Assembly (NCBI GenBank): GCA_963920705.1
Contig: CAWUCO010000186.1
Coordinates: 186,001 to 250,000, forward strand
DNA from: Odiellus spinosus
Taxonomy: Eukaryota > Arthropoda > Arachnida > Opiliones > Phalangiidae
Direction: 5' to 3'
DNA: 64,000 nt
Part shown: one piece after another, positions 16,107 through 64,000 of the stretch
Numbering within the stretch: position 1 is the stretch's first letter
Layout of the letters: each line of letters begins with the position of its first letter
Made by a program: the position numbers and the translations under genes
Notes under the pieces: model-generated
Database searches by the model: none
Told to the model about the DNA's origin: nothing
What the model saw: only the letters and a program-made list of their open reading frames with translations

Positions 16107-18275
16107 TCTATACTTGGGAAATTTTTGGATCTATACTTGGGTAATTTTTCGATCTATACTTCGGAAATTTTTGGATTTATACTTGGGAAATTTTTGGATC
16201 TATACTTGGGAAATTTTTGGATCTATACTTGGGAAATTTTTCGATCTATACTTGGTTGAAATTTTTCGATCTATACTTGGGTAATTTTTCGATCTATACT
16301 TGGGAAATTTTTCGATCTATACTTGGGAAATTTTTCGATCTATACTTGGGAAATTTTTCGATCTATACTTGGGAAATTTTTCGATCTATACTTGGGAAAT
16401 TTTTCGATCTATACTTGGGAAATTTTTCGATCTATACTTGGGGGAAATTTTTCGATCTATACTTGGGGGAAATTTTTCGATCTATAACTTGGGTAATTTT
16501 TCTATCTATACTTGGGAAATTTTTCGATCTATTCTTGGGAAATTTTTCGATCTATACTTGGGAAATTTTTAGATCTATACTTGAAAAAAAATTTTCGATC
16601 TATACTTGGGAAATTTTTCGATCTATACTTGGGAAATTTTTCGATCTATAATTGGGAAATTTTTCGATGTATACTTGGGAAATTTTTCGATCTATTCTTG
16701 GGAAATTTTTCGATCTATTCTTGGGAAATTTTTCGAGCTATACTTGGGAAATTTTTAGATCTATACTTGAAAAAAATTTTCGATCTATACTTGGGAAATT
16801 TTTCGATCTTTACGAGGGAAATTTTTCGATCTATACTTGGGAAATTTTTCGATCTATACTTGGGAAATTTTTCGATCTATACTTGGGAAATTTTTGGATT
16901 TATTCTTGGGAAATTTTTGGATCTATACTTGGGAAATTTTTCGATGTATACTTGGGAAATTTTTCGATCTATACTTGTGAAATTTTTAGATCTATACTTG
17001 GGAAATTTTTGGATCTATACTTGGGTAATTTTTCGATCTATACTTGGGGGAAATTTTTCGATCTATACTTGGGGGAAATTTTTCGATCTATAACTTGGGT
17101 AATTTTTCTATCTATACTTGGGAAATTTTTCGATCTATTCTTGGGAAATTTTTCGATCTATTCTTGGGAAATTTTTCGATCTATACTTGGGAAATTTTTA
17201 GATCTATACTTGAAAAAAAATTTTCGATCTATACTATGGAAATTTTTCGATCTATACTTGGGAAATTTTTCGATCTATACTTGGGAAATTTTTCGATGTA
17301 TACTTGGGAAATTTTTCGATCTATACTTGGGAAATTTTTCGATCTATTCTTGGGAAATTTTTCGATCTATTCTTGGGAAATTTTTCGATCTATACTTGGG
17401 AAATTTTTAGATCTATACTTGAAAAAAATTTTCGATCTATACTTGGGAAATTTTTCGATCTTTACGAGGGAAATTTTTCGATCTGTACTTGGGAAATTTT
17501 TCGATCTATACTTGGGAAATTTTTGGATCTATATCTGGAAAATTTTTGGATCTATACTTGGGAAATTTTTGGATCTATACTTGGGTAATTTTTCGATCTA
17601 TACTTCGGAAATTTTTGGATTTATACTTGGGAAATTTTTGGATCTATACTTGGGAAATTTTTGGATCTATACTTGGGAAATTTTTCGATCTATACTTGGT
17701 TGAAATTTTTCGATCTATACTTGGTTGAAATTTTTCGATCTATACTTGGGTAATTTTTCGATCTATACTTGGGAAATTTTTCGATCTATACTTGGGAAAT
17801 TTTTCGATCTATACTTGGGAAATTTTTCGATCTATACTTGGGAAATTTTTCGATCTATACTTGGGAAATTTTTCGATCTATACTTGGGGGAAATTTTTCG
17901 ATCTATACTTGGGGGAAATTTTTCGATCTATAACTTGGGTAATTTTTCTATCTATACTTGGGAAATTTTTCGATCTATTCTTGGGAAATTTTTCGATCTA
18001 TTCTTGGGAAATTTTTCGATCTATACTTGGGAAATTTTTAGACCTATACTTGAAAAAAAATTTTCGATCTATACTTGGGAAATTTTTCGATCTATACTTG
18101 GGAAATTTTTCGATCTATACTTGGGAAATTTTTCGATGTATACTTGGGAAATTTTTCGATCTATTCTTGGGAAATTTTTCGATCTATTCTTGGGAAATTT
18201 TTCGATCTATACTTGGGAAATTTTTAGATCTATACTTGAAAAAAAATTTCGATCTATACTTGGGAAATTTTTCGA
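16107..18275 (+). repeat. 2,168-bp HOR unit A4, second tandem copy
   Basis: This unit directly abuts the first copy. It differs by an extra 25-bp GGTTGAAA monomer at ~17,700-17,725 (two in a row here, one in copy 1), one monomer fewer in the following plain run, and a GACCTATAC variant at ~18,042. The left edge of the large macro-duplication (~17.4 kb) falls inside this unit. Confidence 0.8.
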
Positions 18276-21200
18276 TCTTTACGAGGGAAATTTTTCGATC
18301 TATACTTGGGAAATTTTTCGATCTATACTTGGGAAATTTTTCGATCTATACTTGGGAAATTTTTGGATTTATACTTGGGAAATTTTTGGATCTATACTTG
18401 GGAAATTTTTCGATGTATACTTGGGAAATTTTTCGATCTATACTTGTGAAATTTTTAGATCTATACTTGGGAAATTTTTGGATCTATACTTGGGAAATTT
18501 TTGGATCTGTACTTGGGAAATTTTTGGATCTATACTTGTGAAATTTTTGGATCTATACTTGGGAAATTTTTGGATCTATATCTGGAAAATTTTTGGATCT
18601 ATACTTGGGAAATTTTTGGATCTATACTTGGGTAATTTTTCGATCTATTCTTCGGAAATTTTTGGATTTATACTTGGGAAATTTTTGGATCTATACTTGG
18701 GAAATTTTTCGATCTATACTTGGTTGAAATTTTTCGATCTATACTTGGGTAATTTTTCGATCTATACTTGGGAAAGTTTTGGATCTATACTTGGGAAATT
18801 TTTCGATCTATACTTGGGAAATTTTTCGATCTATACTTGGGAAATTTTTCGATCTATACTTGGGAAATTTTTCGATCAATACTTGGGAAATTTTTCGATC
18901 TATACTTGGGAAATTTTTGGATCTATACTTGGGTAATTTTTCGATCTATACTTGGGGGAAATTTTTCGATCTATACTTGGGGGAAATTTTTCGATCTATA
19001 ACTTGGGTAATTTTTCTATCTATACTTGGGAAATTTTTCGATCTATTCTTGGGAAATTTTTCGATCTATTCTTGGGAAATTTTTCGATCTATACTTGGGA
19101 AATTTTTAGATCTATACTTGAAAAAAATTTTTCGATCTATACTTGGGAAATTTTTCGATCTATACTTGGGAAATTTTTCGATCTATACTTGGGAAATTTT
19201 TCGATCTATACTTGGGAAATTTTTCGATCTATACTTGGGAAATTTTTCGATCTATTCTTGGGAAATTTTTCGATCTATTCTTGGGAAATTTTTCGATCTA
19301 TACTTGGGAAATTTTTAGATCTATACTTGAAAAAAATTTTCGATTTATACTTGGGAAATTTTTCGATCTTTACGAGGGAAATTTTTCGATCTATACTTGG
19401 GAAATTTTTCGATCTATACTTGGGAAATTTTTCGATCTATACTTGGGAAATTTTTGGATTTATACTTGGGAAATTTTTCGATGTATACTTGGGAAATTTT
19501 TCGATCTATACTTGTGAAATTTTTAGATCTATACTTGGGAAATTTTTGGATCTATACTTGGGAAATTTTTGGATCTATACTTGGGAAATTTTTGGATCTA
19601 TACTTGTGAAATTTTTGGATCTATACTTGGGAAATTTTTGGATCTATATCTGGAAAATTTTTGGATCTATACTTGGGAAGTTTTTGGATCTATACTTGGG
19701 TAATTTTTCGATCTATACTTCGGAAATTTTTGGATTTATACTTGGGAAATTTTTGGATCTATACTTGGTAAATTTTTCGATCTATACTTGGTTGAAATTT
19801 TTCGATCTATACTTGGGTAATTTTTCGATCTATACTTGGGAAATTTTTCGATCTATACTTGGGAAATTTTTCGATCTATACTTGGGAAATTTTTCGATCT
19901 ATACTTGGGAAATTTTTCGATCTATACTTGGGAAATTTTTCGATCTATACTTGGGAAATTTTTCGATCTATACTTGGGGAAATTTTTCGATCTATACTTG
20001 GGGGAAATTTTTCGATCTATAACTTGGGTAATTTTTCTATCTATACTTGGGAAATTTTTCGATCTATTCTTGGGAAATTTTTCGATCTATTCTTGGGAAA
20101 TTTTTCGATCTATACTTGGGAAATTTTTAGATCTATACTTGAAAAAAAATTTTCGATCTATACTTGGGAAATTTTTCGATCTATACTTGGGAAATTTTTC
20201 GATCTATACTTGGGAAATTTTTCGATGTATACTTGGGAAATTTTTCGATCTATTCTTGGGAAATTTTTCGATCTATTCTTGGGAAATTTTTCGATCTATA
20301 CTTGGGAAATTTTTAGATCTATACTTGAAAAAAATTTTCGATCTATACTTGGGAAATTTTTCGATCTTTACGAGGGAAATTTTTCGATCTATACTTGGGA
20401 AATTTTTCGATCTATACTTGGGAAATTTTTCGATCTATACTTGGGAAATTTTTGGATTTATACTTGGGAAATTTTTGGATCTATACTTGGGAAATTTTTC
20501 GATGTATACTTGGGAAATTTTTCGATCTATACTTGTGAAATTTTTAGATCTATACTTGGGAAATTTTTGGATCTATACTTGGGAAATTTTTGGATCTGTA
20601 CTTGGGAAATTTTTGGATCTATACTTGTGAAATTTTTGTATCTATACTTGGGAAATTTTTGGATCTATATCTGGAAAATTTTTGGATCTATACTTGGGAA
20701 ATTTTTGGATCTATACTTGGGTAATTTTTCGATCTATACTTCGGAAATTTTTGGATTTATACATGTGGAAATTTTTGAATCTATACTTGGGAAATTTTTC
20801 GATCTATACTTGGTTGAAATTTTTCGATCTATACTTGGGTAATTTTTCGATCTATACTTGGGAAAGTTTTGGATCTATACTTGGGAAATTTTTCGATCTA
20901 TACTTGGGAAATTTTTCGATCTATACTTGGGAAATTTTTCGATCTATACTTGGGAAATTTTTCGATCTATACTTGGGAAATTTTTGGATCTATACTTGGG
21001 TAATTTTTCGATCTATACTTGGGGGAAATTTTTCGATCTATACTTGGGGGAAATTTTTCGATCTATAACTTGGGTAATTTTTCTATCTATACTTGGGAAA
21101 TTTTTCGATCTATTCTTGGGAAATTTTTCCATCTATTCTTGGGAAATTTTTCGATCTATACTTGGGAAATTTTTAGATCTATACTTGAAAAAATTTTTTC

Positions 21201-23930
21201 GATCTATACTTGGGAAATTTTTCGATCTATACTTGGGAAATTTTTCGATCTATACTTGGGAAATTTTTCGATGTATACTTGGGAAATTTTTCGATCTATA
21301 CTTGGGAAATTTTTCGATCTATTCTTGGGAAATTTTTCGATCTATTCTTGGGAAATTTTTCGATCTATACTTGGGAAATTTTTAGATCTATACTTGAAAA
21401 AAATTTTCGATCTATACTTGGGAAATTTTTCGATCTTTACGAGGGAAATTTTTCGATCTGTACTTGGGAAATTTTTAGATCTATACTTGAAAAAAATTTT
21501 TCGATCTATACTTGGGAAATTTTTCGATCTATACTTGGGAAATTTTTCGATCTATACTTGGGAAATTTTTCGATGTATACTTGGGAAATTTTTCGATCTA
21601 TTCTTGGGAAATTTTTCGATCTATTCTTGGGAAATTTTTCGATCTATACTTGGGAAATTTTTAGATCTATACTTGAAAAAAATTTTCGATCTATACTTGG
21701 GAAATTTTTCGATCTTTACGAGGGAAATTTTTCGATCTATACTTGGGAAATTTTTCGATCTATACTTGGGAAATTTTTCGATCTATACTTGGGAAATTTT
21801 TGGATTTATACTTGGGAAATTTTTGGATCTATACTTGGGAAATTTTTCGATGTATACTTGGGAAATTTTTCGATCTATACTTGTGAAATTTTTAGATCTA
21901 TACTTGGGAAATTTTTGGATCTATACTTGGGAAATTTTTGGATCTGTACTTGGGAAATTTTTGGATCTATACTTGTGAAATTTTTGGATCTATACTTGGG
22001 AAATTTTTGGATCTAAATCTGGAAAATTTTTGGATCTATACTTGGGAAATTTTTGGATCTATACTTGGGTAATTTTTCGATCTATACTTCGGAAATTTTT
22101 GGATTTATACTTGGGAAATTTTTGGATCTATACTTGGGAAATTTTTCGATCTATACTTGGTTGAAATTTTTCGATCTATACTTGGGTAATTTTTCGATCT
22201 ATACTTGGGAAAGTTTTGGATCTATACTTGGGAAATTTTTCGATCTATACTTGGAAATTTTTCGATCTATACTTGGGAAATTTTTCGATCTATACTTGGG
22301 AAATTTTTCGATCTATACTTGGGAAATTTTTCGATCTATACTTGGGAAATTTTTGGATCTATACTTGGGTAATTTTTCGATCTATACTTGGGGGAAATTT
22401 TTCGATCTATACTTGGGGGAAATTTTTCGATCTATAACTTGGGTAATTTTTCTATCTATACTTGGGAAATTTTTCGATCTATTCTTGGGAAATTTTTCGA
22501 TCTATTCTTGGGAAATTTTTCGATCTATACTTGGGAAATTTTTAGATCTATACTTGAAAAAAATTTTTCGATCTATACTTGGGAAATTTTTCGATCTATA
22601 CTTGGGAAATTTTTCGATGTATACTTGGGAAATTTTTCGATCTATACTTGGGAAATTTTTCGATCTATTCTTGGGAAATTTTTCGATCTATACTTGGGAA
22701 ATTTTTAGATCTATACTTGAAAAAAATTTTCGATCTATACTTGGGAAATTTTTCGATCTTTACGAGGGAAATTTTTCGATCTGTACTTGGGAAATTTTTC
22801 GATCTATACTTCGGAAATTTTTGGATTTATACTTGGGAAATTTTTGGATCTATACTTGGGAAATTTTTGGATCTATACTTGGGAAATTTTTGGATCTATA
22901 CTTGGGAAATTTTTGGATCTATACTTGTGAAATTTTTGGATCTATACTTGGGAAATTTTTGGATCTATATCTGGAAAATTTTTGGATCTATACTTGGGAA
23001 ATTTTTGGATCTATACTTGGGTAATTTTTCGATCTATACTTCGGAAATTTTTGGATTTATACTTGGGAAATTTTTGGATCTATACTTGGGAAATTTTTCG
23101 ATCTATACTTGGTTGAAATTTTTCGATCTATACTTGGGTAATTTTTCGATCTATACTTGGGAAATTTTTCGATCTATACTTGGGAAATTTTTCGATCTAT
23201 ACTTGGGAAATTTTTCGATCTATACTTGGGAAATTTTTCGATCTATACTTGGGGAATTTTTCGATCTATACTTGGGAAATTTTTCGATCTATACTTGGGG
23301 GAAATTTTTCGATCTATACTTGGGGGAAATTTTTCGATCTATAACTTGGGTAATTTTTCTATCTATACTTGGGAAATTTTTCGATCTATTCTTGGGAAAT
23401 TTTTCGATCTATTCTTGGGAAATTTTTCGATCTATACTTGGGAAATTTTTAGATCTATACTTGAAAAAAATTTTTCGATCTATACTTGGGAAATTTTTCG
23501 ATCTATACTTGGGAAATTTTTCGATCTATACTTGGGAAATTTTTCGATGTATACTTGGGAAATTTTTCGATCTATTCTTGGGAAATTTTTCGATCTATTC
23601 TTGGGAAATTTTTCGATCTATACTAGGGAAATTTTTAGATCTATACTTGAAAAAAATTTTCGATCTATACTTGGGAAATTTTTCGATCTTTACGAGGGAA
23701 ATTTTTGGATTTATACTTGGGAAATTTTTGGATCTATACTTGGGAAATTTTTCGATCTATACTTGGTTGAAATTTTTCGATCTATACTTGGGTAATTTTT
23801 CGATCTATACTTGGGAAAGTTTTGGATCTATACTTGGGAAATTTTTCGATCTATACTTGGGAAATTTTTCGATCTATACTTGGGAAATTTTTCGATCTAT
23901 ACTTGGGTAATTTTTCGATCTATACTTGGG

Positions 23931-26509
23931 AAAATTTTTTATCTATACTTGGGAAATTTTTGGATCTATACTTGGGAAATTTTTCGATCTATACTTGGGA
24001 AATTTTTCGATCTATATTTGGGAAATTTTTCGATCTATACTTGGGAAATTTTTCGATCTATACTTGGGAAATTTTTCGATCTATACTTGGGAAATTTTTC
24101 GATCTATACTTATGAAATTTTTCGATCTATACCTGGACAATTTTTGCATCTATACTTCGGAAATTTTTGGATCTATACTTGGGAAATTTCTGGATCTATA
24201 CTTGGGGGAAATTTTTCGATCTATACTTGGGTAATTTTTCTATCTATACTTGGGAAATTTTTCGATCTATTCTTGGGAAATTTTTCGATCTATTCTTGGG
24301 AAATTTTTCGATCTATACTTGGGAAATTTTTAGATCTATACTTGAAAAAATTTTTCGATCTATACTTGGGAAATTTTTCGATCTATACTATGGAAATTTT
24401 TCGATCTATACTTGGGTAATTTTTCGATCTATACTTGGGAAATTTTTGGATTAATACTTGGGAAATTTTTGGATCTATACTTGGGAAATTTTTCGATCTA
24501 TACTTGGTTGAAATTTTTCGATCTATACTTGGGTAATTTTTCGATCTATACTTGGGAAATTTTTGGATCTATACTTGGGAAATTTTTCGATCTATACTTG
24601 GGAAATTTTTCGATCTATACTTGGGAAATTTTTCGATCTATACTTGGGAAATTTTTCGATCTATACTTGGGAAATTTTTCGATCTATACTTGGGAAATTT
24701 TTGGATCTATACTTGGGAAATTTTTGGATCTATACTTGAGAAATTTTTGGATCATTACTTGGGAAATTTTTCGATCTATACTTGGGAAATTTTTAGATCT
24801 ATACTTGAAAAAAAATTTTCGATCTATACTTGGGAAATTTTTCGATCTATACTTGGGAAATTTTTCGATCTATACTTGGGAAATTTTTCGATCTATTCTT
24901 GGGAAATTTTTCGATCTATTCTTGGGAAATTTTTCGATCTATACTTGGGAAATTTTTAGATCTATACTTGAAAAAAATTTTCGATCTATACTTGGGAAAT
25001 TTTTCGATCTTTACGAGGGAAATTTTTCGATCTATACTTGGGAAATTTTTCGATCTATACTTGGGAAATTTTTCGATCTATACTTGGGAAATTTTTGGAT
25101 TTATACTTGGGAAATTTTTGGATCTATACTTGGGAAATTTTTCGATGTATACTTGGGAAATTTTTCGATCTATACTTGTGAAATTTTTAGATCTATACTT
25201 GGGAAATTTTTGGATCTATACTTGGGAAATTTTTGGATCTATACTTGGGAAATTTTTGGATCTATACTTGTGAAATTTTTGGATCTATACTTGGGAAATT
25301 TTTGGATCTATATCTGGAAAATTTTTGGATCTATACTTGGGAAATTTTTGGATCTATACTTGGGTAATTTTTCGATCTATACTTCGGAAATTTTTGGATT
25401 TATACTTGGGAAATTTTTGGATCTATACTTGGGAAATTTTTCGATCTATACTTGGTTGAAATTTTTCGATCTATACTTGGGTAATTTTTCGATCTATACT
25501 TGGGAAAGTTTTGGATCTATACTTGGGAAATTTTTCGACCTATACTTGGGAAATTTTTCGATCTATACTTGGGAAATTTTTCGATCTATACTTGGGAAAT
25601 TTTTCGATCTATACTTGGGAAATTTTTCGATCTATACTTGGGTAATTTTTCGATCTATACTTGGGAAAGTTTTTTATCTATACTTGGGAAATTTTTGGAT
25701 CTATACTTGGGAAATTTTTCGATCTATACTTGGGAAATTTTTCGATCTATACTTGGGAAATTTTTCGATCTATACTTGGGAAATTTTTCGATTTATACTT
25801 GGGAAATTTTTCGATCTATACTTGGGAAATTTTTCGATCTATACTTATGAAATTTTTCGATCTATACCTGGAAAATTTTTGCATCTATACTACGGAAATT
25901 TTTGGATCTATACTTGGGAAATTTTTCGATCTATACTTGGGAATTTTTTGGATCTATACTTGGGAAATTTTTCGATCTATACTTGGGAAATTTTTCGATC
26001 TATACTTGGAAAATCTTTCGATCTATACTTGGGAAATTTTTGGATCTATACTTGGGAAATTTTTTTATCTATACTTGGGAAATTTTTCGATCTATACTTG
26101 GGGGAAATTTTTCGATCTATACTTGGGGGAAATTTTTCGATCTATAACTTGGGTAATTTTTCTATCTATACTTGGGAAATTTTTCGATCTATTCTTGGGA
26201 AATTTTTCGATCTATTCTTGGGAAATTTTTCGATCTACACTTGGGAAATTTTAAGATCTATACTTGAAAAAAAATTTTCGATCTATACTTGGGAAATTTT
26301 TCGATCTATACTTATGAAATTTTTCGATCTATACCTGGAAAATTTTTGCATCTATACTACGGAAATTTTTGGATCTATACTTGGGAAATTTTTCGATCTA
26401 TACTTGGGAATTTTTTGGATCTATACTTGGGAAATTTTTCGATCTATACTTGGGAAATTTTTCGATCTATACTTGGAAAATCTTTCGATCTATACTTGGG
26501 AAATTTTTG
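23931..26509 (+). repeat. A/B mosaic zone
   Basis: Block A markers (TTTACGAGG at ~25,012, a TGTGAAA to AAAGTTTTGG cassette at ~25,177-25,507) alternate here with variants otherwise typical of later blocks: TTTTTTTATC monomers at ~23,935 and ~25,670, and CTTATGAAA then CCTGGAAAA (or CCTGGACAA) then GCATCTATAC at ~24,110 and ~25,845. Block C uses the same three-monomer series repeatedly. Inferred: recombination between families, or the source from which block C expanded. Confidence 0.75.
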
Positions 26510-26721
26510 GATCTATACTTGGGAAATTTTTTTATCTATACTTGGGAAATTTTTCGATCTATACTTGGGGGAAATTTTTCGATCTATACTTGGGGGAAAT
26601 TTTTCGATCTATAACTTGGGTAATTTTTCTATCTATACTTGGGAAATTTTTCGATCTATTCTTGGGAAATTTTTCGATCTATTCTTGGGAAATTTTTCGA
26701 TCTACACTTGGGAAATTTTAA
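24412..26721 (+). other. Longest stop-free stretch (769 codons); not called a gene
   Basis: This is the longest open frame from an ATG in the window. Its translation is a 23-residue period, GNFSIYTWEIFR then SILGKFFDLYL, with substitutions set by the monomer variants. The same peptide is read in all three + frames because the 23-bp monomer has no stop triplet and 23 is not divisible by 3. The frame's ends are fixed by variant monomers that carry TAA (GGGTAA), TGA (TGTGAA, CTTGAA, GGTTGAA) or TAG (TTTTAGATC). There is no splice structure, promoter or conserved domain visible, and overlapping frames are equally open. Similar stretches lie at 26,289-28,118, 27,671-29,488, 31,251-33,128, 53,078-54,682 and 58,080-59,864. 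I judge these non-coding. Confidence 0.85.
25812..26278 (+). repeat. 467-bp HOR unit, first tandem copy
   Basis: The offset of 467 bp links 25,841 to 26,308 and 25,902 to 26,369. The unit runs CTTATGAAA, CCTGGAAAA, GCATCTATACTACGG, a TTGGGAATTTTTTGG monomer, GGAAAATCTTTCG, TTTTTTTATC, two GGGGGAAA, TATAACTTGGGTAA, GATCTATTC pair, GATCTACAC, TTTTAAGATC and CTTGAAAAAAAA. The same doublet is present in the right macro copy (~59,108 and ~59,575), so it predates the macro-duplication. Confidence 0.85.
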
Positions 26722-26745
26722 GATCTATACTTGAAAAAAAATTTT
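26279..26745 (+). repeat. 467-bp HOR unit, second tandem copy
   Basis: This copy directly follows the first with the same private variants (TTTTAAGATC, GATCTACAC, CTACGGAAA). Its right-copy homologue near 59,575-59,995 is 46 bp shorter: two monomers are missing near 59,700. Confidence 0.85.
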
Positions 26746-27906
26746 CGATCTATACTTGGGAAATTTTTCGATCTATACTTGGGAAATTTTTCGATCTATA
26801 CTTGGGAAATTTTTCGATGTATACTTGGGAAATTTTTCGATCTATTCTTGGGAAATTTTTGGATCTATACTTGGGAAATTTTTGGATCTATACTTTTGAA
26901 ATTTTTCGATCTATACTTGGGAGAAATTTTTCGATCTATACTTGGGGGAAATTTTTCGATCTATACTTGGGTAATTTTTCGATCTATACTTGGGAAATTT
27001 TTGGATCTATACTTGGGAAATTTTTGGATCTATATTTGGGAAATTTTTGGATCTATACTTGGGAAATTTTTGGATCTATACTTGAGAAATTTTTGGATCT
27101 ATACTTGGGAAATTTTTCGATCTATTCTTGGGAAATTTTTGGATCTATACTTGGGAAATTTTTAGATCTATACTTGGGAAATATTTTTCGATCTATACTT
27201 GGGAAATTTTTCGATCTATACTTGGGAAATTTTTCGATCTATACTTGGGTAATTTTTGGATTTATACTTGGGAAATTTTTGGATCTATACTTGGGAAATT
27301 TTTCGATCTATACTTGGTTGAAATTTTTCGATCTATACTTGGGTAATTTTTGGATCTATACTTGGGAAATTTTTGGATCTATACTTGGGAAATTTTTCGA
27401 TCTATACTTTGGAAATTTTTCGATCTATACTTGGGAAATTTTTCGATCTATACTTGGGAAATTTTTCGATCTATACTTGGGAAATTTTTCGATCTATACT
27501 TGGGAAATTTTTCGATCTATACTTGGAAATTTTTCGATCTATACTTGGGAAATTTTTGGATCTATACTTGGGAAATTTTTGGATCTATACTTGGAAAATT
27601 TTTGTACCTATACTTGGGAAATTTTTCGATCTATACTTGAGAAATTTTTGGATCTATACTTGGGAAATTTTTGGATCTATACTTGGGAAATTTTTCGATC
27701 TATACTTGGGAACTTTTTCGATCTATACTTGGAAATTTTTCGATCTATACTTGGGAAATTTTTCGATCTATACTTGGGAAATTTTTGGATCTATACTTGG
27801 GAAATTTTTGGATCTATACTTGGGAAATTTTTCGATCTATACTTGGGAGAAATTTTTCGATCTATACTTGGGGGAAATTTTTCGATCTATACTTGGGTAA
27901 TTTTTC
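26510..27906 (+). repeat. 1,397-bp HOR unit B1, first tandem copy
   Basis: The offset to the next unit is a constant 1,397 bp (26,731 to 28,128; 27,128 to 28,525; 27,350 to 28,747; 27,671 to 29,068). The unit starts near a TTTTTTTATC monomer and ends after a GGGGGAAA/GGGTAA pair. The right macro copy has this unit only once (~59,760-61,100). Confidence 0.85.
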
Positions 27907-29303: not shown

Positions 29304-29599
29304 GATCTATACTTGGGAAATTTTTGGATCTATACTTGGGAAATTTTTGGATCTATATTTGGGAAATTTTTGGATCTATACTTGGGAAATTTTTGGATCT
29401 ATACCTGAGAAATTTTTGGATCTATACTTGGGAAATTTTTCGATCTATTCTTGGGAAATTTTTGGATCTATACTTGGGAAATTTTTAGATCTATACTTGG
29501 GAAATATTTTTCGATCTATACTTGGGAAATTTTTCGATCTAAACTTGGGTAATTTTTGGATTTATACTTGGGAAATTTTTGGATCTATACTTGGGAAAT

Positions 29600-33723: not shown

Positions 33724-33728
33724 TTTTG

Positions 33729-40220: not shown

Positions 40221-40726
40221 TATACTTGGGAAATTTTTCGATCTATACTTGGGAAATTTTTCGATCTATACTTGGGAAATTTTTCGATCTATACTTGGGA
40301 AATTTTTCGTTCTATACTTGTGAAATTTTTCGATCTATACCTGGAAAATTTTTGCATCTATACTTCGGAAATTTTTGGATCTATACTTGGGAAATTTTTG
40401 GATCTATACTTGGGAAATTTTTCGATATATACTTGGGAAATTTTTGGATCTATACTTGGGAAATTTTTGGATCTATACTTTTGATATTTTTGGATCTATA
40501 CTTGGGAAATTTTTCGATCTATACTTGGGAAATTTTTCGATCTATACTTGGGAAATTTTTCGATCTATACTTGGGAAATTTTTCGATCTATACTTATGAA
40601 ATTATTCGATCTATACCTGGAAAATTTTTGCATCTATACTTTGGAAATTTTTGGTTCTATACTTGGGAAATTTTTGGATCTATTCTTGGGAAATTTTTCG
40701 ATATATACTTCGGAAATTTTTGGATC
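40198..40726 (+). repeat. 529-bp HOR unit, second tandem copy
   Basis: This copy immediately follows the first. It is followed in turn by a partial third unit at an offset of 414 bp (40,548 to 40,962), exactly 18 monomers. The ATTATTCGATC variant therefore appears three times (~40,072, ~40,601, ~41,015). Confidence 0.85.
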
Positions 40727-45120: not shown

Positions 45121-45124
45121 CTAT

Positions 45125-50580: not shown

Positions 50581-52790
50581 TTTTGATATTTTTGGATCTA
50601 TACTTGGGAAATTTTTGGATCTATACTTGGGAAATTTTTGGATCTATACTTGGGAAATTTTTGGATCTATACTTGGGAAATTTTTCGATCTATACTTGGG
50701 TAATTTTTCGATCTAGACTTGGGAAATTTTTGGATTTATACTTGGGAAATTTTTGGATCTATACTTGGGAAATTTTTCGATCTATACTTGGGAAATCTTT
50801 CGATCTATACTTATGAAATTTTTCGATCTATACCTGGAAAATTTTTGCATCTATACTTTGGAAATTTTTGGTTCTATACTTGGGAAATTTTTGGATCTAT
50901 ACTTGGGAAATTTTTCGATCTATACTTGGGAAATTTTTCGATCTATACTTGGGAAATTTTTCGATCTATACTTGGGAAATTTTTCGATGTATACTTGGGA
51001 AATTTTTCGATCTATTCTTGGGAAATTTTTCGATCTATACTTGGGAAATTTTTAGATCTATACTTGAAAAAAATTTTCGATCTATACTTGGGAAATTTTT
51101 CGATCTATACTTGGGAAATTTTTCGATCTATACTTGGGTAATTTTTCGATCTAGACTTGGGAAATTTTTGGATTTATACTTGGGAAATTTTTGGATCTAT
51201 ACTTGGGAAATTTTTCGATATATACTTGGGAAATTTTTCGATCTATACTTGGGAAATTTTTGGATCTATACTTGGGAATTTTTTGGATCTATACTTGGGA
51301 AATTTTTGGATCTATACTTGGGAAATTTTTCGATCTATACTTGGGAAATTTTTCGATCTATACTTGGGAGAAACTTTTCGATCGATACTTGGGGGAAATT
51401 TAACGATCTATACTTGGGTAATTTTTCGATCTATACTTGGGAAATTTTTGGATCTATACTTGGGAAATTTTTGGATCTATACTTGGGAAATTTTTGGATC
51501 TATACTTGGGAAATTTTTCGATCTATACTTGGGAAATTTTTCGATGTATACTTGGGAAATTTTTCGATCTATTCTTGGGAAATTTTTCGATCTATACTTG
51601 GGAAATTTTTAGATCTATACTTGAAAAAAATTTTCGATCTATACTTGGGAAATTTTGGGAAATTTTTGGATTTATACTTGGGAAATTTTTGGATCTATAC
51701 TTGGGAAATTTTTCAATCTATATTTGGTTGAAATTTTTCGATCTATACTTGGGTAATTTTTCGATCTATACTTGGGAAATTTTTGGATCTATACTTGGGA
51801 AATTTTTGGATCTATACATGGGAAATTTTTCGATCTATACTTGAGAAATTTTTGGATCTATACTTGGGAAATTTTTCGATCTATACTTGGGAAATTTTTC
51901 GATCAATACTTGGGAAATTTTTCGATCTATACTTGGGAAATTTTTGGATCTATACTTGGTAAATTTTTCGATCTATACTAGGGAAATTTTTCGATCTATA
52001 CTTGGGAGAAATTTTTCGATCTATACTTGGGGGAAATTTTTCGATCTATACTTGGGTAATTTTTCCATCTAAACTTGGGAAATTTTTGGATCTATACTTG
52101 AGAAATTTTTGGATCTATACTTGGGAAATTTTTAGATCTATACTTGGGAAATATTTTTCGATCTATACTTGGGAAATTTTTCGATCTATACTTGGGAAAT
52201 TTTTCGATCTATACTTGGGAAATTTTTCGATCTATACTTGGGAAATTTTTCGTTCTATACTTGTGAAATTTTTCGATCTATACCTGGAAAATTTTTGCAT
52301 CTATTCTTCGGAAATTTTTGGATCTATACTTGGGAAATTTTTGGATCTATACTTGGGAAATTTTTCGATATATACTTGGGAAATTTTTGGATCTATACTT
52401 GGGAAATTTTTGGATCTATACTTTTGATATTTTTGGATCTATACTTGGGAAATTTTTGGATCTATACTTGGGAAATTTTTGGATCTATACTTGGGAAATT
52501 TTTCGATCTATACTTGGGTAATTTTTCGATCTAGACTTGGGAAATTTTTGGATTTATACTTGGGAAATTTTTCGATCTATACTTGGGAAATTTTTCGATC
52601 TATACTTGGGAAATTTTTGGATCTATACTTGGGAAATTTTTGGATCTATACTTGGGAAATTTTTGGATCTATACTTGGGAAATTTTTCGATCTATACTTG
52701 GGAAATTTTTTGATCTATACTTGGGAAATTTTTCGATGTATACTTGTGAAATTTTTCGATCTATTCTTGGGAAATTTTTGGATCTATACT
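50581..52790 (+). repeat. 2,521-bp HOR unit C5, second copy with two internal losses
   Basis: This copy abuts the first. It lacks 253 bp near ~51,360 (exactly 11 monomers) and 59 bp near ~51,655 (not a whole number of monomers, leaving an out-of-phase junction). It ends at a CTTTTGATATTT monomer just before the block C to block A switch. Confidence 0.83.
51640..51668 (+). other. Out-of-register junction between monomers
   Basis: Here the text reads TTGGGAAATTTT and then at once GGGAAATTTTTGG, so the GATCTATACTT part of a monomer is missing. The homologous place in the first C5 copy (~49,390-49,450) has intact monomers. The shared GGGAAATTTT on both sides is a plausible microhomology. Most other rearrangements in the window keep the 23-bp phase. 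Confidence 0.8.
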
Positions 52791-52817
52791 TGGGAAATTT
52801 TTGGATCTATACTTTTG

Positions 52818-52828
52818 ATATTTTTAGA
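52818..52828 (+). other. Block C to block A switch point
   Basis: Left of the junction is the block C monomer CTTTTGATA; right of it is TTTTTAGATC, CTTGAAAAAAA, then TTTACGAGG, matching 17,404 onward. The break lies within the shared T run at 52,821-52,825 and keeps the monomer register. Block C homologues at this place (for example ~50,590) continue as TTTTTGGATC. Confidence 0.85.
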
Positions 52829-55800
52829 TCTATACTTGAAAAAAATTTTCGATCTATACTTGGGAAATTTTTCGATCTTTACGAGGGAAATTTTTCGATC
52901 TGTACTTGGGAAATTTTTCGATCTATACTTGGGAAATTTTTGGATCTATATCTGGAAAATTTTTGGATCTATACTTGGGAAATTTTTGGATCTATACTTG
53001 GGTAATTTTTCGATCTATACTTCGGAAATTTTTGGATTTATACTTGGGAAATTTTTGGATCTATACTTGGGAAATTTTTGGATCTATACTTGGGAAATTT
53101 TTCGATCTATACTTGGTTGAAATTTTTCGATCTATACTTGGGTAATTTTTCGATCTATACTTGGGAAATTTTTCGATCTATACTTGGGAAATTTTTCGAT
53201 CTATACTTGGGAAATTTTTCGATCTATACTTGGGAAATTTTTCGATCTATACTTGGGAAATTTTTCGATCTATACTTGGGGGAAATTTTTCGATCTATAC
53301 TTGGGGGAAATTTTTCGATCTATAACTTGGGTAATTTTTCTATCTATACTTGGGAAATTTTTCGATCTATTCTTGGGAAATTTTTCGATCTATTCTTGGG
53401 AAATTTTTCGATCTATACTTGGGAAATTTTTAGACCTATACTTGAAAAAAAATTTTCGATCTATACTTGGGAAATTTTTCGATCTATACTTGGGAAATTT
53501 TTCGATCTATACTTGGGAAATTTTTCGATGTATACTTGGGAAATTTTTCGATCTATTCTTGGGAAATTTTTCGATCTATTCTTGGGAAATTTTTCGATCT
53601 ATACTTGGGAAATTTTTAGATCTATACTTGAAAAAAATTTTCGATCTATACTTGGGAAATTTTTCGATCTTTACGAGGGAAATTTTTCGATCTATACTTG
53701 GGAAATTTTTCGATCTATACTTGGGAAATTTTTCGATCTATACTTGGGAAATTTTTGGATTTATACTTGGGAAATTTTTGGATCTATACTTGGGAAATTT
53801 TTCGATGTATACTTGGGAAATTTTTCGATCTATACTTGTGAAATTTTTAGATCTATACTTGGGAAATTTTTGGATCTATACTTGGGAAATTTTTGGATCT
53901 GTACTTGGGAAATTTTTGGATCTATACTTGTGAAATTTTTGGATCTATACTTGGGAAATTTTTGGATCTATATCTGGAAAATTTTTGGATCTATACTTGG
54001 GAAATTTTTGGATCTATACTTGGGTAATTTTTCGATCTATTCTTCGGAAATTTTTGGATTTATACTTGGGAAATTTTTGGATCTATACTTGGGAAATTTT
54101 TCGATCTATACTTGGTTGAAATTTTTCGATCTATACTTGGGTAATTTTTCGATCTATACTTGGGAAAGTTTTGGATCTATACTTGGGAAATTTTTCGATC
54201 TATACTTGGGAAATTTTTCGATCTATACTTGGGAAATTTTTCGATCTATACTTGGGAAATTTTTCGATCAATACTTGGGAAATTTTTCGATCTATACTTG
54301 GGAAATTTTTGGATCTATACTTGGGAAATTTTTCGATCTATTCTTGGGAAATTTTTCGATCTATTCTTGGGAAATTTTTCGATCTATACTTGGGAAATTT
54401 TTCGATCTATTCTTGGGAAATTTTTCCATCTATTCTTGGGAAATTTTTCGATCTATACTTGGGAAATTTTTAGATCTATACTTGAAAAAAATTTTTCGAT
54501 CTATACTTGGGAAATTTTTCGATCTATACTTGGGAAATTTTTCGATCTATACTTGGGAAATTTTTCGATGTATACTTGGGAAATTTTTCGATCTATACTT
54601 GGGAAATTTTTCGATCTATTCTTGGGAAATTTTTCGATCTATTCTTGGGAAATTTTTCGATCTATACTTGGGAAATTTTTAGATCTATACTTGAAAAAAA
54701 TTTTCGATCTATACTTGGGAAATTTTTCGATCTTTACGAGGGAAATTTTTCGATCTGTACTTGGGAAATTTTTAGATCTATACTTGAAAAAAATTTTTCG
54801 ATCTATACTTGGGAAATTTTTCGATCTATACTAGGGAAATTTTTCGATCTATACTTGGGAAATTTTTCGATGTATACTTGGGAAATTTTTCGATCTATTC
54901 TTGGGAAATTTTTCGATCTATTCTTGGGAAATTTTTCGATCTATACTTGGGAAATTTTTAGATCTATACTTGAAAAAAATTTTCGATCTATACTTGGGAA
55001 ATTTTTCGATCTTTACGAGGGAAATTTTTCGATCTATACTTGGGAAATTTTTCGATCTATACTTGGGAAATTTTTCGATCTATACTTGGGAAATTTTTGG
55101 ATTTATACTTGGGAAATTTTTGGATCTATACTTGGGAAATTTTTCGATGTATACTTGGGAAATTTTTCGATCTATACTTGTGAAATTTTTAGATCTATAC
55201 TTGGGAAATTTTTGGATCTATACTTGGGAAATTTTTGGATCTGTACTTGGGAAATTTTTGGATCTATACTTGTGAAATTTTTGGATCTATACTTGGGAAA
55301 TTTTTGGATCTAAATCTGGAAAATTTTTGGATCTATACTTGGGAAATTTTTGGATCTATACTTGGGTAATTTTTCGATCTATACTTCGGAAATTTTTGGA
55401 TTTATACTTGGGAAATTTTTGGATCTATACTTGGGAAATTTTTCGATCTATACTTGGTTGAAATTTTTCGATCTATACTTGGGTAATTTTTCGATCTATA
55501 CTTGGGAAAGTTTTGGATCTATACTTGGGAAATTTTTCGATCTATACTTGGAAATTTTTCGATCTATACTTGGGAAATTTTTCGATCTATACTTGGGAAA
55601 TTTTTCGATCTATACTTGGGAAATTTTTCGATCTATACTTGGGAAATTTTTGGATCTATACTTGGGTAATTTTTCGATCTATACTTGGGGGAAATTTTTC
55701 GATCTATACTTGGGGGAAATTTTTCGATCTATAACTTGGGTAATTTTTCTATCTATTCTTGGGAAATTTTTCGATCTATTCTTGGGAAATTTTTCGATCT

Positions 55801-58800
55801 ATTCTTGGGAAATTTTTCGATCTATACTTGGGAAATTTTTAGATCTATACTTGAAAAAAATTTTTCGATCTATACTTGGGAAATTTTTCGATCTATACTT
55901 GGGAAATTTTTCGATGTATACTTGGGAAATTTTTCGATCTATACTTGGGAAATTTTTCGATCTATTCTTGGGAAATTTTTCGATCTATACTTGGGAAATT
56001 TTTAGATCTATACTTGAAAAAAATTTTCGATCTATACTTGGGAAATTTTTCGATCTTTACGAGGGAAATTTTTCGATCTGTACTTGGGAAATTTTTCGAT
56101 CTATACTTCGGAAATTTTTGGATTTATACTTGGGAAATTTTTGGATCTATACTTGGGAAATTTTTGGATCTATACTTGGGAAATTTTTGGATCTATACTT
56201 GGGAAATTTTTGGATCTATACTTGTGAAATTTTTGGATCTATACTTGGGAAATTTTTGGATCTATATCTGGAAAATTTTTGGATCTATACTTGGGAAATT
56301 TTTGGATCTATACTTGGGTAATTTTTCGATCTATACTTCGGAAATTTTTGGATTATACTTGGGAAATTTTTGGATCTATACTTGGGAAATTTTTCGATCT
56401 ATACTTGGTTGAAATTTTTCGATCTATACTTGGGTAATTTTTCGATCTATACTTGGGAAATTTTTCGATCTATACTTGGGAAATTTTTCGATCTATACTT
56501 GGGAAATTTTTCGATCTATACTTGGGAAATTTTTCGATCTATACTTGGGGAATTTTTCGATCTATACTTGGGAAATTTTTCGATCTATACTTGGGGGAAA
56601 TTTTTCGATCTATACTTGGGGGAAATTTTTCGATCTATAACTTGGGTAATTTTTCTATCTATACTTGGGAAATTTTTCGATCTATTCTTGGGAAATTTTT
56701 CGATCTATTCTTGGGAAATTTTTCGATCTATACTTGGGAAATTTTTAGATCTATACTTGAAAAAAATTTTTCGATCTATACTTGGGAAATTTTTCGATCT
56801 ATACTTGGGAAATTTTTCGATCTATACTTGGGAAATTTTTCGATGTATACTTGGGAAATTTTTCGATCTATTCTTGGGAAATTTTTCGATCTATTCTTGG
56901 GAAATTTTTCGATCTATACTAGGGAAATTTTTAGATCTATACTTGAAAAAAATTTTCGATCTATACTTGGGAAATTTTTCGATCTTTACGAGGGAAATTT
57001 TTGGATTTATACTTGGGAAATTTTTGGATCTATACTTGGGAAATTTTTCGATCTATACTTGGTTGAAATTTTTCGATCTATACTTGGGTAATTTTTCGAT
57101 CTATACTTGGGAAAGTTTTGGATCTATACTTGGGAAATTTTTCGATCTATACTTGGGAAATTTTTCGATCTATACTTGGGAAATTTTTCGATCTATACTT
57201 GGGTAATTTTTCGATCTATACTTGGGAAAATTTTTTATCTATACTTGGGAAATTTTTCGATCTATACTTGGGAAATTTTTCGATCTATACTTGGGAAATT
57301 TTTCGATCTATACTTGGGAAATTTTTCGATCTATACTTGGGAAATTTTTCGATCTATACTTGGGAAATTTTTCGATCTATACTTGGGAAATTTTTCGATC
57401 TATACTTATGAAATTTTTCGATCTATACCTGGACAATTTTTGCATCTATACTTCGGAAATTTTTGGATCTATACTTGGGAAATTTCTGGATCTATACTTG
57501 GGGGAAATTTTTCGATCTATACTTGGGTAATTTTTCTATCTATACTTGGGAAATTTTTCGATCTATTCTTGGGAAATTTTTCGATCTATTCTTGGGAAAT
57601 TTTTCGATCTATACTTGGGAAATTTTTAGATCTATACTTGAAAAAATTTTTCGATCTATACTTGGGAAATTTTTCGATCTATACTATGGAAATTTTTCGA
57701 TCTATACTTGGGTAATTTTTCGATCTATACTTGGGAAATTTTTGGATTAATACTTGGGAAATTTTTGGATCTATACTTGGGAAATTTTTCGATCTATACT
57801 TGGTTGAAATTTTTGGATCTATACTTGGGAAATTTTTCGATCTATACTTGGGAAATTTTTCGATCTATACTTGGGAAATTTTTCGATCTATACTTGGGAA
57901 ATTTTTCGATCTATACTTGGGAAATTTTTCGATCTATACTTGGGAAATTTTTGGATCTATACTTGGGAAATTTTTGGATCTATACTTGAGAAATTTTTGG
58001 ATCATTACTTGGGAAATTTTTCGATCTATACTTGGGAAATTTTTAGATCTATACTTGAAAAAAAATTTTCGATCTATACTTGGGAAATTTTTCGATCTAT
58101 ACTTGGGAAATTTTTCGATCTATACTTGGGAAATTTTTCGATGTATACTTGGGAAATTTTTCGATCTATTCTTGGGAAATTTTTCGATCTATTCTTGGGA
58201 AATTTTTCGATCTATTCTTGGGAAATTTTTCGATCTATACTTGGGAAATTTTTAGATCTATACTTGAAAAAAATTTTCGATCTATACTTGGGAAATTTTT
58301 CGATCTTTACGAGGGAAATTTTTCGATCTATACTTGGGAAATTTTTCGATCTATACTTGGGAAATTTTTCGATCTATACTTGGGAAATTTTTGGATTTAT
58401 ACTTGGGAAATTTTTGGATCTATACTTGGGAAATTTTTCGATGTATACTTGGGAAATTTTTCGATCTATACTTGTGAAATTTTTAGATCTATACTTGGGA
58501 AATTTTTGGATCTATACTTGGGAAATTTTTGGATCTATACTTGGGAAATTTTTGGATCTATACTTGTGAAATTTTTGGATCTATACTTGGGAAATTTTTG
58601 GATCTATATCTGGAAAATTTTTGGATCTATACTTGGGAAATTTTTGGATCTATACTTGGGTAATTTTTCGATCTATACTTCGGAAATTTTTGGATTTATA
58701 CTTGGGAAATTTTTGGATCTATACTTGGGAAATTTTTCGATCTATACTTGGTTGAAATTTTTCGATCTATACTTGGGTAATTTTTCGATCTATACTTGGG

Positions 58801-61800
58801 AAAGTTTTGGATCTATACTTGGGAAATTTTTCGACCTATACTTGGGAAATTTTTCGATCTATACTTGGGAAATTTTTCGATCTATACTTGGGAAATTTTT
58901 CGATCTATACTTGGGAAATTTTTCGATCTATACTTGGGTAATTTTTCGATCTATACTTGGGAAAGTTTTTTATCTATACTTGGGAAATTTTTGGATCTAT
59001 ACTTGGGAAATTTTTCGATCTATACTTGGGAAATTTTTCGATCTATACTTGGGAAATTTTTCGATCTATACTTGGGAAATTTTTCGATTTATACTTGGGA
59101 AATTTTTCGATCTATACTTGGGAAATTTTTCGATCTATACTTATGAAATTTTTCGATCTATACCTGGAAAATTTTTGCATCTATACTACGGAAATTTTTG
59201 GATCTATACTTGGGAAATTTTTCGATCTATACTTGGGAATTTTTTGGATCTATACTTGGGAAATTTTTCGATCTATACTTGGGAAATTTTTCGATCTATA
59301 CTTGGAAAATCTTTCGATCTATACTTGGGAAATTTTTGGATCTATACTTGGGAAATTTTTTTATCTATACTTGGGAAATTTTTCGATCTATACTTGGGGG
59401 AAATTTTTCGATCTATACTTGGGGGAAATTTTTCGATCTATAACTTGGGTAATTTTTCTATCTATACTTGGGAAATTTTTCGATCTATTCTTGGGAAATT
59501 TTTCGATCTATTCTTGGGAAATTTTTCGATCTACACTTGGGAAATTTTAAGATCTATACTTGAAAAAAAATTTTCGATCTATACTTGGGAAATTTTTCGA
59601 TCTATACTTATGAAATTTTTCGATCTATACCTGGAAAATTTTTGCATCTATACTACGGAAATTTTTGGATCTATACTTGGGAAATTTTTCGATCTATACT
59701 TGGGAAATTTTTCGATCTATACTTGGAAAATCTTTCGATCTATACTTGGGAAATTTTTGGATCTATACTTGGGAAATTTTTTTATCTATACTTGGGAAAT
59801 TTTTCGATCTATACTTGGGGGAAATTTTTCGATCTATACTTGGGGGAAATTTTTCGATCTATAACTTGGGTAATTTTTCTATCTATACTTGGGAAATTTT
59901 TCGATCTATTCTTGGGAAATTTTTCGATCTATTCTTGGGAAATTTTTCGATCTACACTTGGGAAATTTTAAGATCTATACTTGAAAAAAAATTTTCGATC
60001 TATACTTGGGAAATTTTTCGATCTATACTTGGGAAATTTTTCGATCTATACTTGGGAAATTTTTCGATGTATACTTGGGAAATTTTTCGATCTATTCTTG
60101 GGAAATTTTTGGATCTATACTTGGGAAATTTTTGGATCTATACTTTTGAAATTTTTCGATCTATACTTGGGAGAAATTTTTCGATCTATACTTGGGGGAA
60201 ATTTTTCGATCTATACTTGGGTAATTTTTCGATCTATACTTGGGAAATTTTTGGATCTATACTTGGGAAATTTTTGGATCTATATTTGGGAAATTTTTGG
60301 ATCTATACTTGGGAAATTTTTGGATCTATACTTGAGAAATTTTTGGATCTATACTTGGGAAATTTTTCGATCTATTCTTGGGAAATTTTTGGATCTATAC
60401 TTGGGAAATTTTTAGATCTATACTTGGGAAATATTTTTCGATCTATACTTGGGAAATTTTTCGATCTATACTTGGGAAATTTTTCGATCTATACTTGGGT
60501 AATTTTTGGATTTATACTTGGGAAATTTTTGGATCTATACTTGGGAAATTTTTCGATCTATACTTGGTTGAAATTTTTCGATCTATACTTGGGTAATTTT
60601 TGGATCTATACTTGGGAAATTTTTGGATCTATACTTGGGAAATTTTTCGATCTATACTTTGGAAATTTTTCGATCTATACTTGGGAAATTTTTCGATCTA
60701 TACTTGGGAAATTTTTCGATCTATACTTGGAAATTTTTCGATCTATACTTGGGAAATTTTTGGATCTATACTTGGGAAATTTTTGGATCTATACTTGGAA
60801 AATTTTTGTACCTATACTTGGGAAATTTTTCGATCTATACTTGAGAAATTTTTGGATCTATACTTGGGAAATTTTTGGATCTATACTTGGGAAATTTTTC
60901 GATCTATACTTGGGAACTTTTTCGATCTATACTTGGAAATTTTTCGATCTATACTTGGGAAATTTTTCGATCTATACTTGGGAAATTTTTGGATCTATAC
61001 TTGGGAAATTTTTGGATCTATACTTGGGAAATTTTTCGATCTATACTTGGGAGAAATTTTTCGATCTATACTTGGGGGAAATTTTTCGATCTATACTTGG
61101 GTAATTTTTCGATCTATACTTGGGAAATTTTTGGATCTATACTTGGGAAATTTTTGGATCTATATTTGGGAAATTTTTGGATCTATACTTGGGAAATTTT
61201 TGGATCTATACCTGAGAAATTTTTGGATCTATACTTGGGAAATTTTTCGATCTATTCTTGGGAAATTTTTGGATCTATACTTGGGAAATTTTTAGATCTA
61301 TACTTGGGAAATATTTTTCGATCTATACTTGGGAAATTTTTCGATCTAAACTTGGGTAATTTTTGGATTTATACTTGGGAAATTTTTGGATCTATACTTG
61401 GGAAATTTTTCGATCTATACTTGGTTGAAATTTTTCGATCTATACTTGGGTAATTTTTGGATCTATACTTGGGAAATTTTTGGATCTATACTTGGGAAAT
61501 TTTTCGATATATACTTTGGAAATTTTTCGATCTATACTTGGGAAATTTTTCGATCTATACTTGGGAAATTTTTGGATCTATACTTGGGAAATTTTTGGAT
61601 CTATATTTGGGAAATTTTTGGATCTATACTTGGGAAATTTTTGGATCTATACTTGAGAAATTTTTGGATCTATACTTTTGAAATTTTTCGATCTATACTT
61701 GGGAGAAATTTTTCGATCTATACTTGGGGGAAATTTTTCGATCTATACTTGGGTAATTTTTCGATCTATACTTGGGAAATTTTTGGATCTATACTTGGGA

Positions 61801-64000
61801 AATTTTTGGATCTATATTTGGGAAATTTTTGGATCTATACTTGGGAAATTTTTGGATCTATACTTGAGAAATTTTTGGATCTATACTTGGGAAATTTTTC
61901 GATCTATTCTTGGGAAATTTTTGGATCTATACTTGGGAAATTTTTAGATCTATACTTGGGAAATATTTTTCGATCTATACTTGGGAAATTTTTCGATCTA
62001 TACTTGGGAAATTTTTCGATCTATACTTGGGTAATTTTTGGATTTATACTTGGGAAATTTTTGGATCTATACTTGGGAAATTTTTCGATCTATACTTGGT
62101 TGAAATTTTTCGATCTATACTTGGGTAATTTTTGGATCTATACTTGGGAAATTTTTGGATCTATACTTGGGAAATTTTTCGATCTATACTTTGGAAATTT
62201 TTCGATCTATACTTGGGAAATTTTTCGATCTATACTTGGGAAATTTTTCGATCTATACTTGGGAAATTTTTCGATCTATACTTGGGAAATTTTTCGATCT
62301 ATACTTGGAAATTTTTCGATCTATACTTGGGAAATTTTTGGATCTATACTTGGGAAATTTTTGGATCTATACTTGGAAAATTTTTGTACCTATACTTGGG
62401 AAATTTTTCGATCTATACTTGAGAAATTTTTGGATCTATACTTGGGAAATTTTTGGATCTATACTTGGGAAATTTTTCGATCTATACTTGGGAACTTTTT
62501 CGATCTATACTTGGAAATTTTTCGATCTATACTTGGGAAATTTTTCGATCTATACTTGGGAAATTTTTGGATCTATACTTGGGAAATTTTTGGATCTATA
62601 CTTGGGAAATTTTTCGATCTATACTTGGGAGAAATTTTTCGATCTATACTTGGGGGAAATTTTTCGATCTATACTTGGGTAATTTTTCGATCTATACTTG
62701 GGAAATTTTTGGATCTATACTTGGGAAATTTTTGGATCTATATTTGGGAAATTTTTGGATCTATACTTGGGAAATTTTTGGATCTATACCTGAGAAATTT
62801 TTGGATCTATACTTGGGAAATTTTTCGATCTATTCTTGGGAAATTTTTGGATCTATACTTGGGAAATTTTTAGATCTATACTTGGGAAATATTTTTCGAT
62901 CTATACTTGGGAAATTTTTCGATCTAAACTTGGGTAATTTTTGGATTTATACTTGGGAAATTTTTGGATCTATACTTGGGAAATTTTTCGATCTATACTT
63001 GGTTGAAATTTTTCGATCTATACTTGGGTAATTTTTGGATCTATACTTGGGAAATTTTTGGATCTATACTTGGGAAATTTTTCGATATATACTTTGGAAA
63101 TTTTTCGATCTATACTTGGGAAATTTTTCGATCTATACTTGGGAAATTTTTCGATCTATACTTGGGAAATTTTTCGATCTATACTTGGAAATTTTTCGAT
63201 CTATACTTGGGAAATTTTTGGATCTATACTTGGGAAATTTTTGGATCTATACTTGAGAAATTTTTGGATCTATACTTGGGAAATTTTTGGATCTATACTT
63301 GGGAAATTTTTCGATCTATACTTGGGAACTTTTTCGATCTATACTTGGGAAATTTTTCGATCTATACTTGGGGAATTTTTCGATCTATACTTGGGAAATT
63401 TTTCGATCTATACTTGGGTAATTTTTCCATCTATACTTGGGAAATTTTTGGATCTATACTTGAGAAATTTTTGGATCTATACTTGGGAAATTTTTCGATC
63501 TATACTTGGGAAATTTTTCGATGTATACTTGGGAAATTTTTCGATCTATTCTTGGGAAATTTTTCGATCTATACTTGGGAAATTTTTCGATCTATACTTG
63601 GGAAATTTTTCGATCTATACTTGGGAAATTTTTCGATCTATACTTGGGAAATTTTTCGATCTATACTTGGGAAATTTTTCGATCTAAACTTGGGAAATTT
63701 TTCGATCTATACTTATGAAATTTTTCGATCTATACCTGGAAAATTTTTGCATCTATACTTTGGAAATTTTTGGTTCTATACTTGGGAAATTTTTGGATCT
63801 ATTCTTGGGAAATTTTTCGATATATACTTGGGAAATTTTTGGATCTATACTTGGGAAATTTTTCGATCTATACTTGGAAAATTTTTCGATCAATACTCGG
63901 GAAATTTTTCGATCTATACTTGGGAAATTTTTGGATCTATACTTGGGAAATTTTTGGATCTATACTTGGGAAATTTTTCTATCTATACTTGGGAGAAACT
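52821..64000 (+). repeat. Macro-repeat, right copy (block A, mosaic, block B, block C start)
   Basis: This copy replays 17,404-34,158 in the same order and orientation: the A4/652-type end (52,821-53,145), A units with TTTACGAGG (~52,876, 53,667, 54,731, 55,012, 56,052, 56,992, 58,308), the mosaic with the 467-bp doublet (~59,108-59,995), block B (~60,000-63,480) and block C onset with the CTTATGAAA series and the start of a CGATCGAT composite at the window end. Relative to the left copy it lacks ~2,095 bp near 54,325, one 1,397-bp unit, one 2,062-bp unit and ~185 bp near 63,590. There are also several 46-bp steps and one 1-bp loss near 56,353. Confidence 0.88.
54318..54345 (+). other. Internal junction in the right macro copy (about 2.1 kb fewer than the left)
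   Basis: Up to ~54,324 the sequence matches 18,9xx (offset 35,392), where the left copy continues with GGGTAA and GGGGGAAA monomers. Here it continues with GGGAAATTTTTCG and GATCTATTC monomers, and from the TTTTTCCATC monomer at ~54,424 it matches 21,127 onward (offset 33,297). The left copy's extra ~2.1 kb includes a TTTACGAGG pair and one full cassette. Monomer phase is preserved. Confidence 0.8.

What the first reader, a model, noticed from the sequence alone, without database searches (positions are those of the whole stretch)
17404..64000. A ~35-kb macro-period above the HOR level
The order block A end, mosaic, block B, block C start at 17.4-34.2 kb is replayed at 52.8-63.7 kb with the same private variants. 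This gives at least four nested levels: 23-bp monomer, cassettes of about 330-650 bp, HOR units of 0.4-2.7 kb, and a segment of tens of kb. Such a long period in a satellite with so short a monomer implies copying of very large tracts, not only local slippage.
Basis: seen in the sequence. Interest (0 to 1): 0.75.

Follow-up and report, generated by a model that had tools for sequence, protein, structure and literature searches.

The report
Recent 35-kb duplication inside satellite DNA
A stretch of highly repetitive satellite DNA about 35 thousand bases long appears to have been copied once, in tandem, and the two copies have since gained and lost smaller repeat units; this is a clear example of a known kind of event, not a proven new regular repeat level.

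Summary
The window is one head-to-tail 23-bp satellite (2,761 monomer pieces, 128 variants). From 52,821 to the window's last base, the sequence repeats 17,404-34,532 in order: 11,134 aligned bases, 9 mismatches (99.92%), including the B/C block junction and 27 monomer variants found nowhere else in the window, 13 of them once per copy and in the same order. Monomer-order score is 1,703, against at most 28.4 in 20 shuffles. The first copy is 5.9 kb longer through internal gains and losses, so the offset drifts from 35.4 to 29.5 kb. The copy starts at a sharp junction, 52,820|52,821: block C meets the end of block A in the 23-bp register, with 6 bp common to both parents. Best explanation: one recent tandem duplication of 17,404-52,820 (35,417 bp) by out-of-register exchange or break-induced replication, then smaller expansions and deletions. 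A repeating unit is not shown: one interval, second copy cut by the window's end, and block A does not resemble block C. Reads, flanks and the organism were out of reach.

The parts
1..17403 (+). Block A: A-type 23-bp satellite array upstream of the first copy
   Evidence: Single TRF array 1-63,994; aligns with X but not with block C
17404..34532 (+). First copy X (17,129 bp): end of block A, mosaic, block B, B/C junction, start of block C
   Evidence: Colinear with 52,821-64,000, 9 mismatches in 11,134 aligned bases
33850..52820 (+). Block C: distinct variant set; with the rest of X it forms the inferred 35,417-bp duplicated tract 17,404-52,820. Left edge approximate.
   Evidence: Variant table and monomer listing; no A-C alignment of score 60 or more
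52820..52825 (+). Duplication junction (52,820|52,821): block C joined to the end of block A in monomer register; ATTTTT is common to both parents
   Evidence: 9 of 9 other copies of the last C monomer (variant 42) are followed by variant 1; 6 of 6 other copies of the 9-monomer string that opens X' are preceded by 2-2-0; the 16-mer across the joint occurs once in the window
52821..64000 (+). Second copy X' (11,180 bp seen; cut by window end)
18891..21100 (+). Region holding two X-only segments (18,891-20,194, 1,304 bp; 20,310-21,100, 791 bp) absent from X'; most likely lost from X'
   Evidence: Six variants seen once in the window lie here; best other place shares 487 and 334 of their 60-mers on one diagonal, so no near-identical neighbour; gaps
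27416..28858 (+). X-only 1,443 bp beside a 1,397-bp near-perfect tandem repeat (1 mismatch); gain in X or loss in X' not decided
29595..33718 (+). Two identical 2,062-bp tandem units in X, one in X'; the unit was doubled in X after the large duplication
   Evidence: 0 differences between the units, 1 between each and X'; the base at 30,423 and 32,485 is shared by both units and found nowhere else in that 81-bp context, while X' and five other places have the other base
17681..17705 (+). One doubled 25-bp monomer (variant 10-10) in X, single in X'
   Evidence: Variant 10 stands single in 41 of 42 places

Best explanation
One recent tandem duplication of about 35.4 kb (17,404-52,820) inside a 23-bp satellite array. 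Inferred mechanism: a broken fork or double-strand break in C-type repeats was repaired on a sister or homologous array out of register, re-entering at the end of block A, by unequal exchange or by break-induced replication. The strand joined in monomer register at a short identity and copied A-end, mosaic, B and C again. Later, smaller events changed the two copies separately: X gained a 2,062-bp unit and a 25-bp monomer; X' most likely lost about 2.1 kb. Shown: colinearity, shared private variants, sharp in-register junction, separate later changes. Inferred: that the copy goes through all of block C, the repair pathway, and that the assembly is right.
For: 99.92% identity over 11,134 aligned bases and 27 variants private to the two copies, 13 single-copy ones in the same order; the copy crosses the B/C junction and runs to the window's end, as a tandem duplication predicts; junction unique in the window, in 23-bp register, with 6 bp shared; 2,062-bp units in X identical and sharing a base that X' lacks; by allele counts elsewhere in the window, 4 of the 9 mismatches look derived in X, 3 in X', and 2 lie in a 115-bp piece whose alignment is uncertain. 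Break-induced replication in arrays, and copying of more than 100 kb by it in yeast, are described in PMC11034957 (passages).
Against: The right end of the second copy is outside the window, so the tract length rests on the tandem model. 101 of 150 distant exact matches of 200 bp or more are not X-X' pairs, so similarity by other routes is common, though shorter. The first 19 monomers of X' match 13,792 without a gap, against 13 at 17,404; a doubled monomer found only in X explains this, but the left source point is slightly uncertain. The 2.1-kb difference at 18.9-21.1 kb needs a complex join. No reads.
Confidence: 0.75

Rival explanations
1. Assembly artefact: two haplotypes, or two paralogous stretches, laid end to end by the assembler.
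For: 0.08% substitution plus unit-number differences is also what two alleles of a satellite could show; no reads or depth were available.
Against: A false join by overlap needs a long shared stretch at the join; the 16-mer across 52,820|52,821 occurs nowhere else in the window and blocks A and C share no monomer-order alignment above 19. No N in the window (base counts). Weakness: 24 of the other 2,755 monomer boundaries also lack a straddling 24-bp repeat, so uniqueness alone is uncommon but not exceptional.
Confidence: 0.13
2. A true tandem macro-period: many units of about 30-35 kb, of which the window shows one and a third.
For: The second copy enters block C as a next unit would.
Against: Upstream block A does not match block C in order (score 19), so no unit in phase lies to the left. 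The two copies already differ by 5.9 kb.
Confidence: 0.1
3. Non-tandem copying: only 17.4 to about 34.5 kb was copied into a C-type array by long gene conversion or insertion.
For: Only the first 0.5-0.7 kb of block C is seen in the second copy.
Against: The second copy keeps the B/C junction and goes on in the order of block C with 0 mismatches. An insertion would need its right end to fall just beyond the window by coincidence.
Confidence: 0.1

Closest known systems
22.7-kb adjacent segmental duplication in maize centromere 10 (PMC4806543, passages and section 23)
   Same: Recent tandem duplication of tens of kb among centromeric repeats, with a 5-nt identity at the junction, ascribed there to alternative end-joining
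   Different: There the tract is several nested and partial retrotransposons and a genomic repeat; here it is pure 23-bp satellite, the joint keeps the monomer register, and later unit gains and losses are visible. That this array is centromeric is not known.
Human satellites 2 and 3 with 1.77-kb and 3.6-kb repeat units (PMC4022460, passages)
   Same: Kb-scale units built on a very short ancestral monomer (5 bp)
   Different: Other sequence; the passages seen do not treat copied tracts of tens of kb
Evolutionary layers in human alpha-satellite arrays (PMC11062924, passages)
   Same: Stretches of near-identical higher-order units within an older array
   Different: 171-bp monomer; the layers named in the passages are 870 kb and 1.21 Mb
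Chio 23-bp satellite of Chionographis japonica (PMC12722358, passages)
   Same: Monomer length
   Different: Chio holds TTCGTACGA; that string is not in the window on either strand

Membership tests
Tandem segmental duplication within a satellite array | Two copies, same orientation, colinear, near identical | tested here: met
   99.92% over 11,134 aligned bases
Tandem segmental duplication within a satellite array | End of first copy joined directly to start of second | tested here: inconclusive
   A sharp C to A-end joint at 52,820|52,821 is there, but that 52,820 is the end of the unit can be known only from the end of the second copy, outside the window
Tandem segmental duplication within a satellite array | Second copy complete, followed by the original downstream flank | not testable with these tools
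   Window ends at 64,000; no genome held
Macro-period (super-HOR array) | Three or more units at a regular interval | tested here: not met
   One interval in the window, drifting from 35.4 to 29.5 kb; A does not match C. Flanks not testable.
Higher-order repeat satellite array | Monomer variants recurring in fixed order at multi-monomer lags | tested here: met
   Block-specific lags; identical 2,062-bp units
Chio satellite | Monomer sequence with TTCGTACGA | tested here: not met
   0 matches in the window
Functional centromere repeat | CENH3/CENP-A binding | not testable with these tools
   Needs ChIP in the organism, which is unknown

The most novel reading that the evidence does not exclude
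The array grows by repeated copying of tracts of tens of kb whose joints keep the 23-bp register, so that whole multi-block segments, not higher-order units, are the main unit of turnover in this satellite.
Probability: 0.2. Interest if true: 0.5.

Novelty: new member of a known kind. Interest (0 to 1): 0.3.

Why it matters
It is a readable example of satellite growth in one step of tens of kb, with the junction preserved and the order of later events partly legible: the large duplication first, then a 2,062-bp unit gained in one copy. Such joints could help to tell end-joining from register-keeping homologous repair in satellites. It does not by itself change what is known.

Tried and rejected
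Organism or relatives: no whole genome is held; a 38-bp exact pattern from the consensus had 0 matches in genome contigs and viral contigs; one 2-kb piece (29,000-31,000) had no match in plasmids (near) or phages (distant); strings from the monomer were in no held paper. These collections are not eukaryote genomes, so little follows.

Older macro-copy A to X: rejected; the best chain has 0.895 monomer identity in 21 pieces with offsets from 15.9 down to 7.6 kb, as expected of units of one family.

X' start copied from 13,792 instead of 17,404: rejected because variants 82 and 83, private to X and X', follow at 53,427 and 54,028, and the doubled monomer at 17,681 is found only there.

Coding: 27 ORFs of 300 aa or more, all on the + strand; ascribed to a consensus without stops on that strand, read by eye; no test of selection was made.

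Corrected on checking: the chain has 470, not 471, identical monomers of 479; tandem end-to-start joining is now marked inconclusive.

Full report
What the window is. Tandem Repeats Finder gives one array from 1 to 63,994 with a 23-bp unit, 2,760 copies, 91% matches (a second small row at 51,627 lies inside it). A wrap-around alignment to the consensus cuts the window into 2,761 pieces with 128 distinct variants, 26 of them seen once (this includes partial pieces at the window's edges). No whole genome is held for it, and the organism is unknown.

The observation. Long exact matches lie at offsets of 35,392, then about 33,296, 33,250, 31,807 and 29,745. Aligned by order of monomer variants, 17.4 kb onward and 52.8 kb onward pair 479 monomers, 470 identical, in 10 pieces (its last 22 monomers were paired with a later C unit). 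In nucleotides, 17,404-34,532 (X, 17,129 bp) and 52,821-64,000 (X', 11,180 bp) share 11,134 aligned bases with 9 mismatches and a 1-bp gap. The right end of the alignment crosses from block B into block C and reaches the last base of the window with no mismatch in its last 1,255 aligned bases.

More than chance. Shuffling the monomers of X' 20 times gave best scores of 15.6 to 28.4 against 1,703. Because shuffles destroy the local units, other real pairs are the better control: A-X, A1-A2, C1-C2, A-C and B-C gave 638, 457, 691, 19 and 36 against 1,920. Of 128 variants, 27 are private to the two copies; 13 of them occur once in each copy, all 13 in the same order, at 18.0-25.8 kb of X. Against this, 101 of 150 exact matches of 200 bp or more at 20 kb or more apart are not X-X' pairs; the longest of them is 660 bp, against 1,569 bp.

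Length differences. X is longer by 25, 1,304, 791, 46, 46, 1,443, 2,062, 185 and 92 bp; X' has one extra 46 bp. This is why the offset falls from 35.4 to 29.5 kb. Some can be given a direction. The two 2,062-bp units of X are identical, each differs from X' at one base, and that base is the same in both, so the unit was doubled in X after the copies parted. The doubled 25-bp monomer in X is the only doubling of that variant in 42 places. The segments at 18.9-21.1 kb carry six variants seen once in the window and have no near-identical neighbour, so X' most likely lost them. Whether the 1,443-bp difference is a gain or a loss is open. Of the 9 mismatches, 4 look derived in X and 3 in X'; 2 lie in a 115-bp piece whose alignment is uncertain (my reading of allele counts elsewhere in the window).

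The junction. At 52,820|52,821 block C stops and the end of block A begins. The last C monomer has 9 other copies, and 9 of 9 are followed by a different monomer; the 9-monomer string that follows has 6 other copies, and 6 of 6 are preceded by a different one. The joint keeps the 23-bp register, with ATTTTT common to both parents, and the 16-mer across it occurs once in the window. An overlap-based assembler has no shared stretch there on which to make a false join, so the junction was probably in a read. That is an argument, not a test: 24 of the other 2,755 monomer boundaries also lack a straddling 24-bp repeat.

Interpretation. These facts fit one tandem duplication of 17,404-52,820 (35,417 bp). 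Unequal exchange between sisters and break-induced replication both predict it; a register-keeping joint suggests pairing of 23-bp repeats, while 6 bp of identity is also compatible with end-joining, as proposed for the 22.7-kb duplication in maize centromere 10 (PMC4806543, section 23). The sequence does not choose between them. Break-induced replication in arrays is discussed in PMC11034957 (passages).

Macro-period. Not shown. There is one interval, the second copy is incomplete, and the 17.4 kb before the first copy do not resemble block C. 'Copying of very large tracts' is supported; 'a period above the HOR level' is not.

Literature. Three string searches found none of the monomer strings in the held library; five topic searches gave the papers named here. 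Most subscription papers are not held, and sequences printed in figures or split lines would be missed. Short monomers with kb-scale units are known in human satellites 2 and 3 (PMC4022460, passages), and layered structure in alpha satellite (PMC11062924, passages). The 23-bp Chio satellite (PMC12722358, passages) has a motif that is absent here.

Noticed in passing
1-64000: The + strand of the consensus has no stop codon in any frame (by eye; 23 is not a multiple of 3), so ORFs up to 769 aa appear; variants with GGGTAA break them. Probably meaningless.
   Followed up: partly
33850-52820: Block C has its own variant set and strong lags near 2.70-2.75 kb; the stretches from 35,139 and 37,841 share 1,660 identical bases.
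   Followed up: partly
4459-5118 and 24848-25507: 660-bp exact match between block A and X, 20.4 kb apart, also found in X' (633 bp at 58,171): an older or separate transfer.
   Followed up: no
1-64000: Strong strand asymmetry (T 44%, A 27%, G 18%, C 11%), in all 64 one-kb steps of the profile.
   Followed up: no
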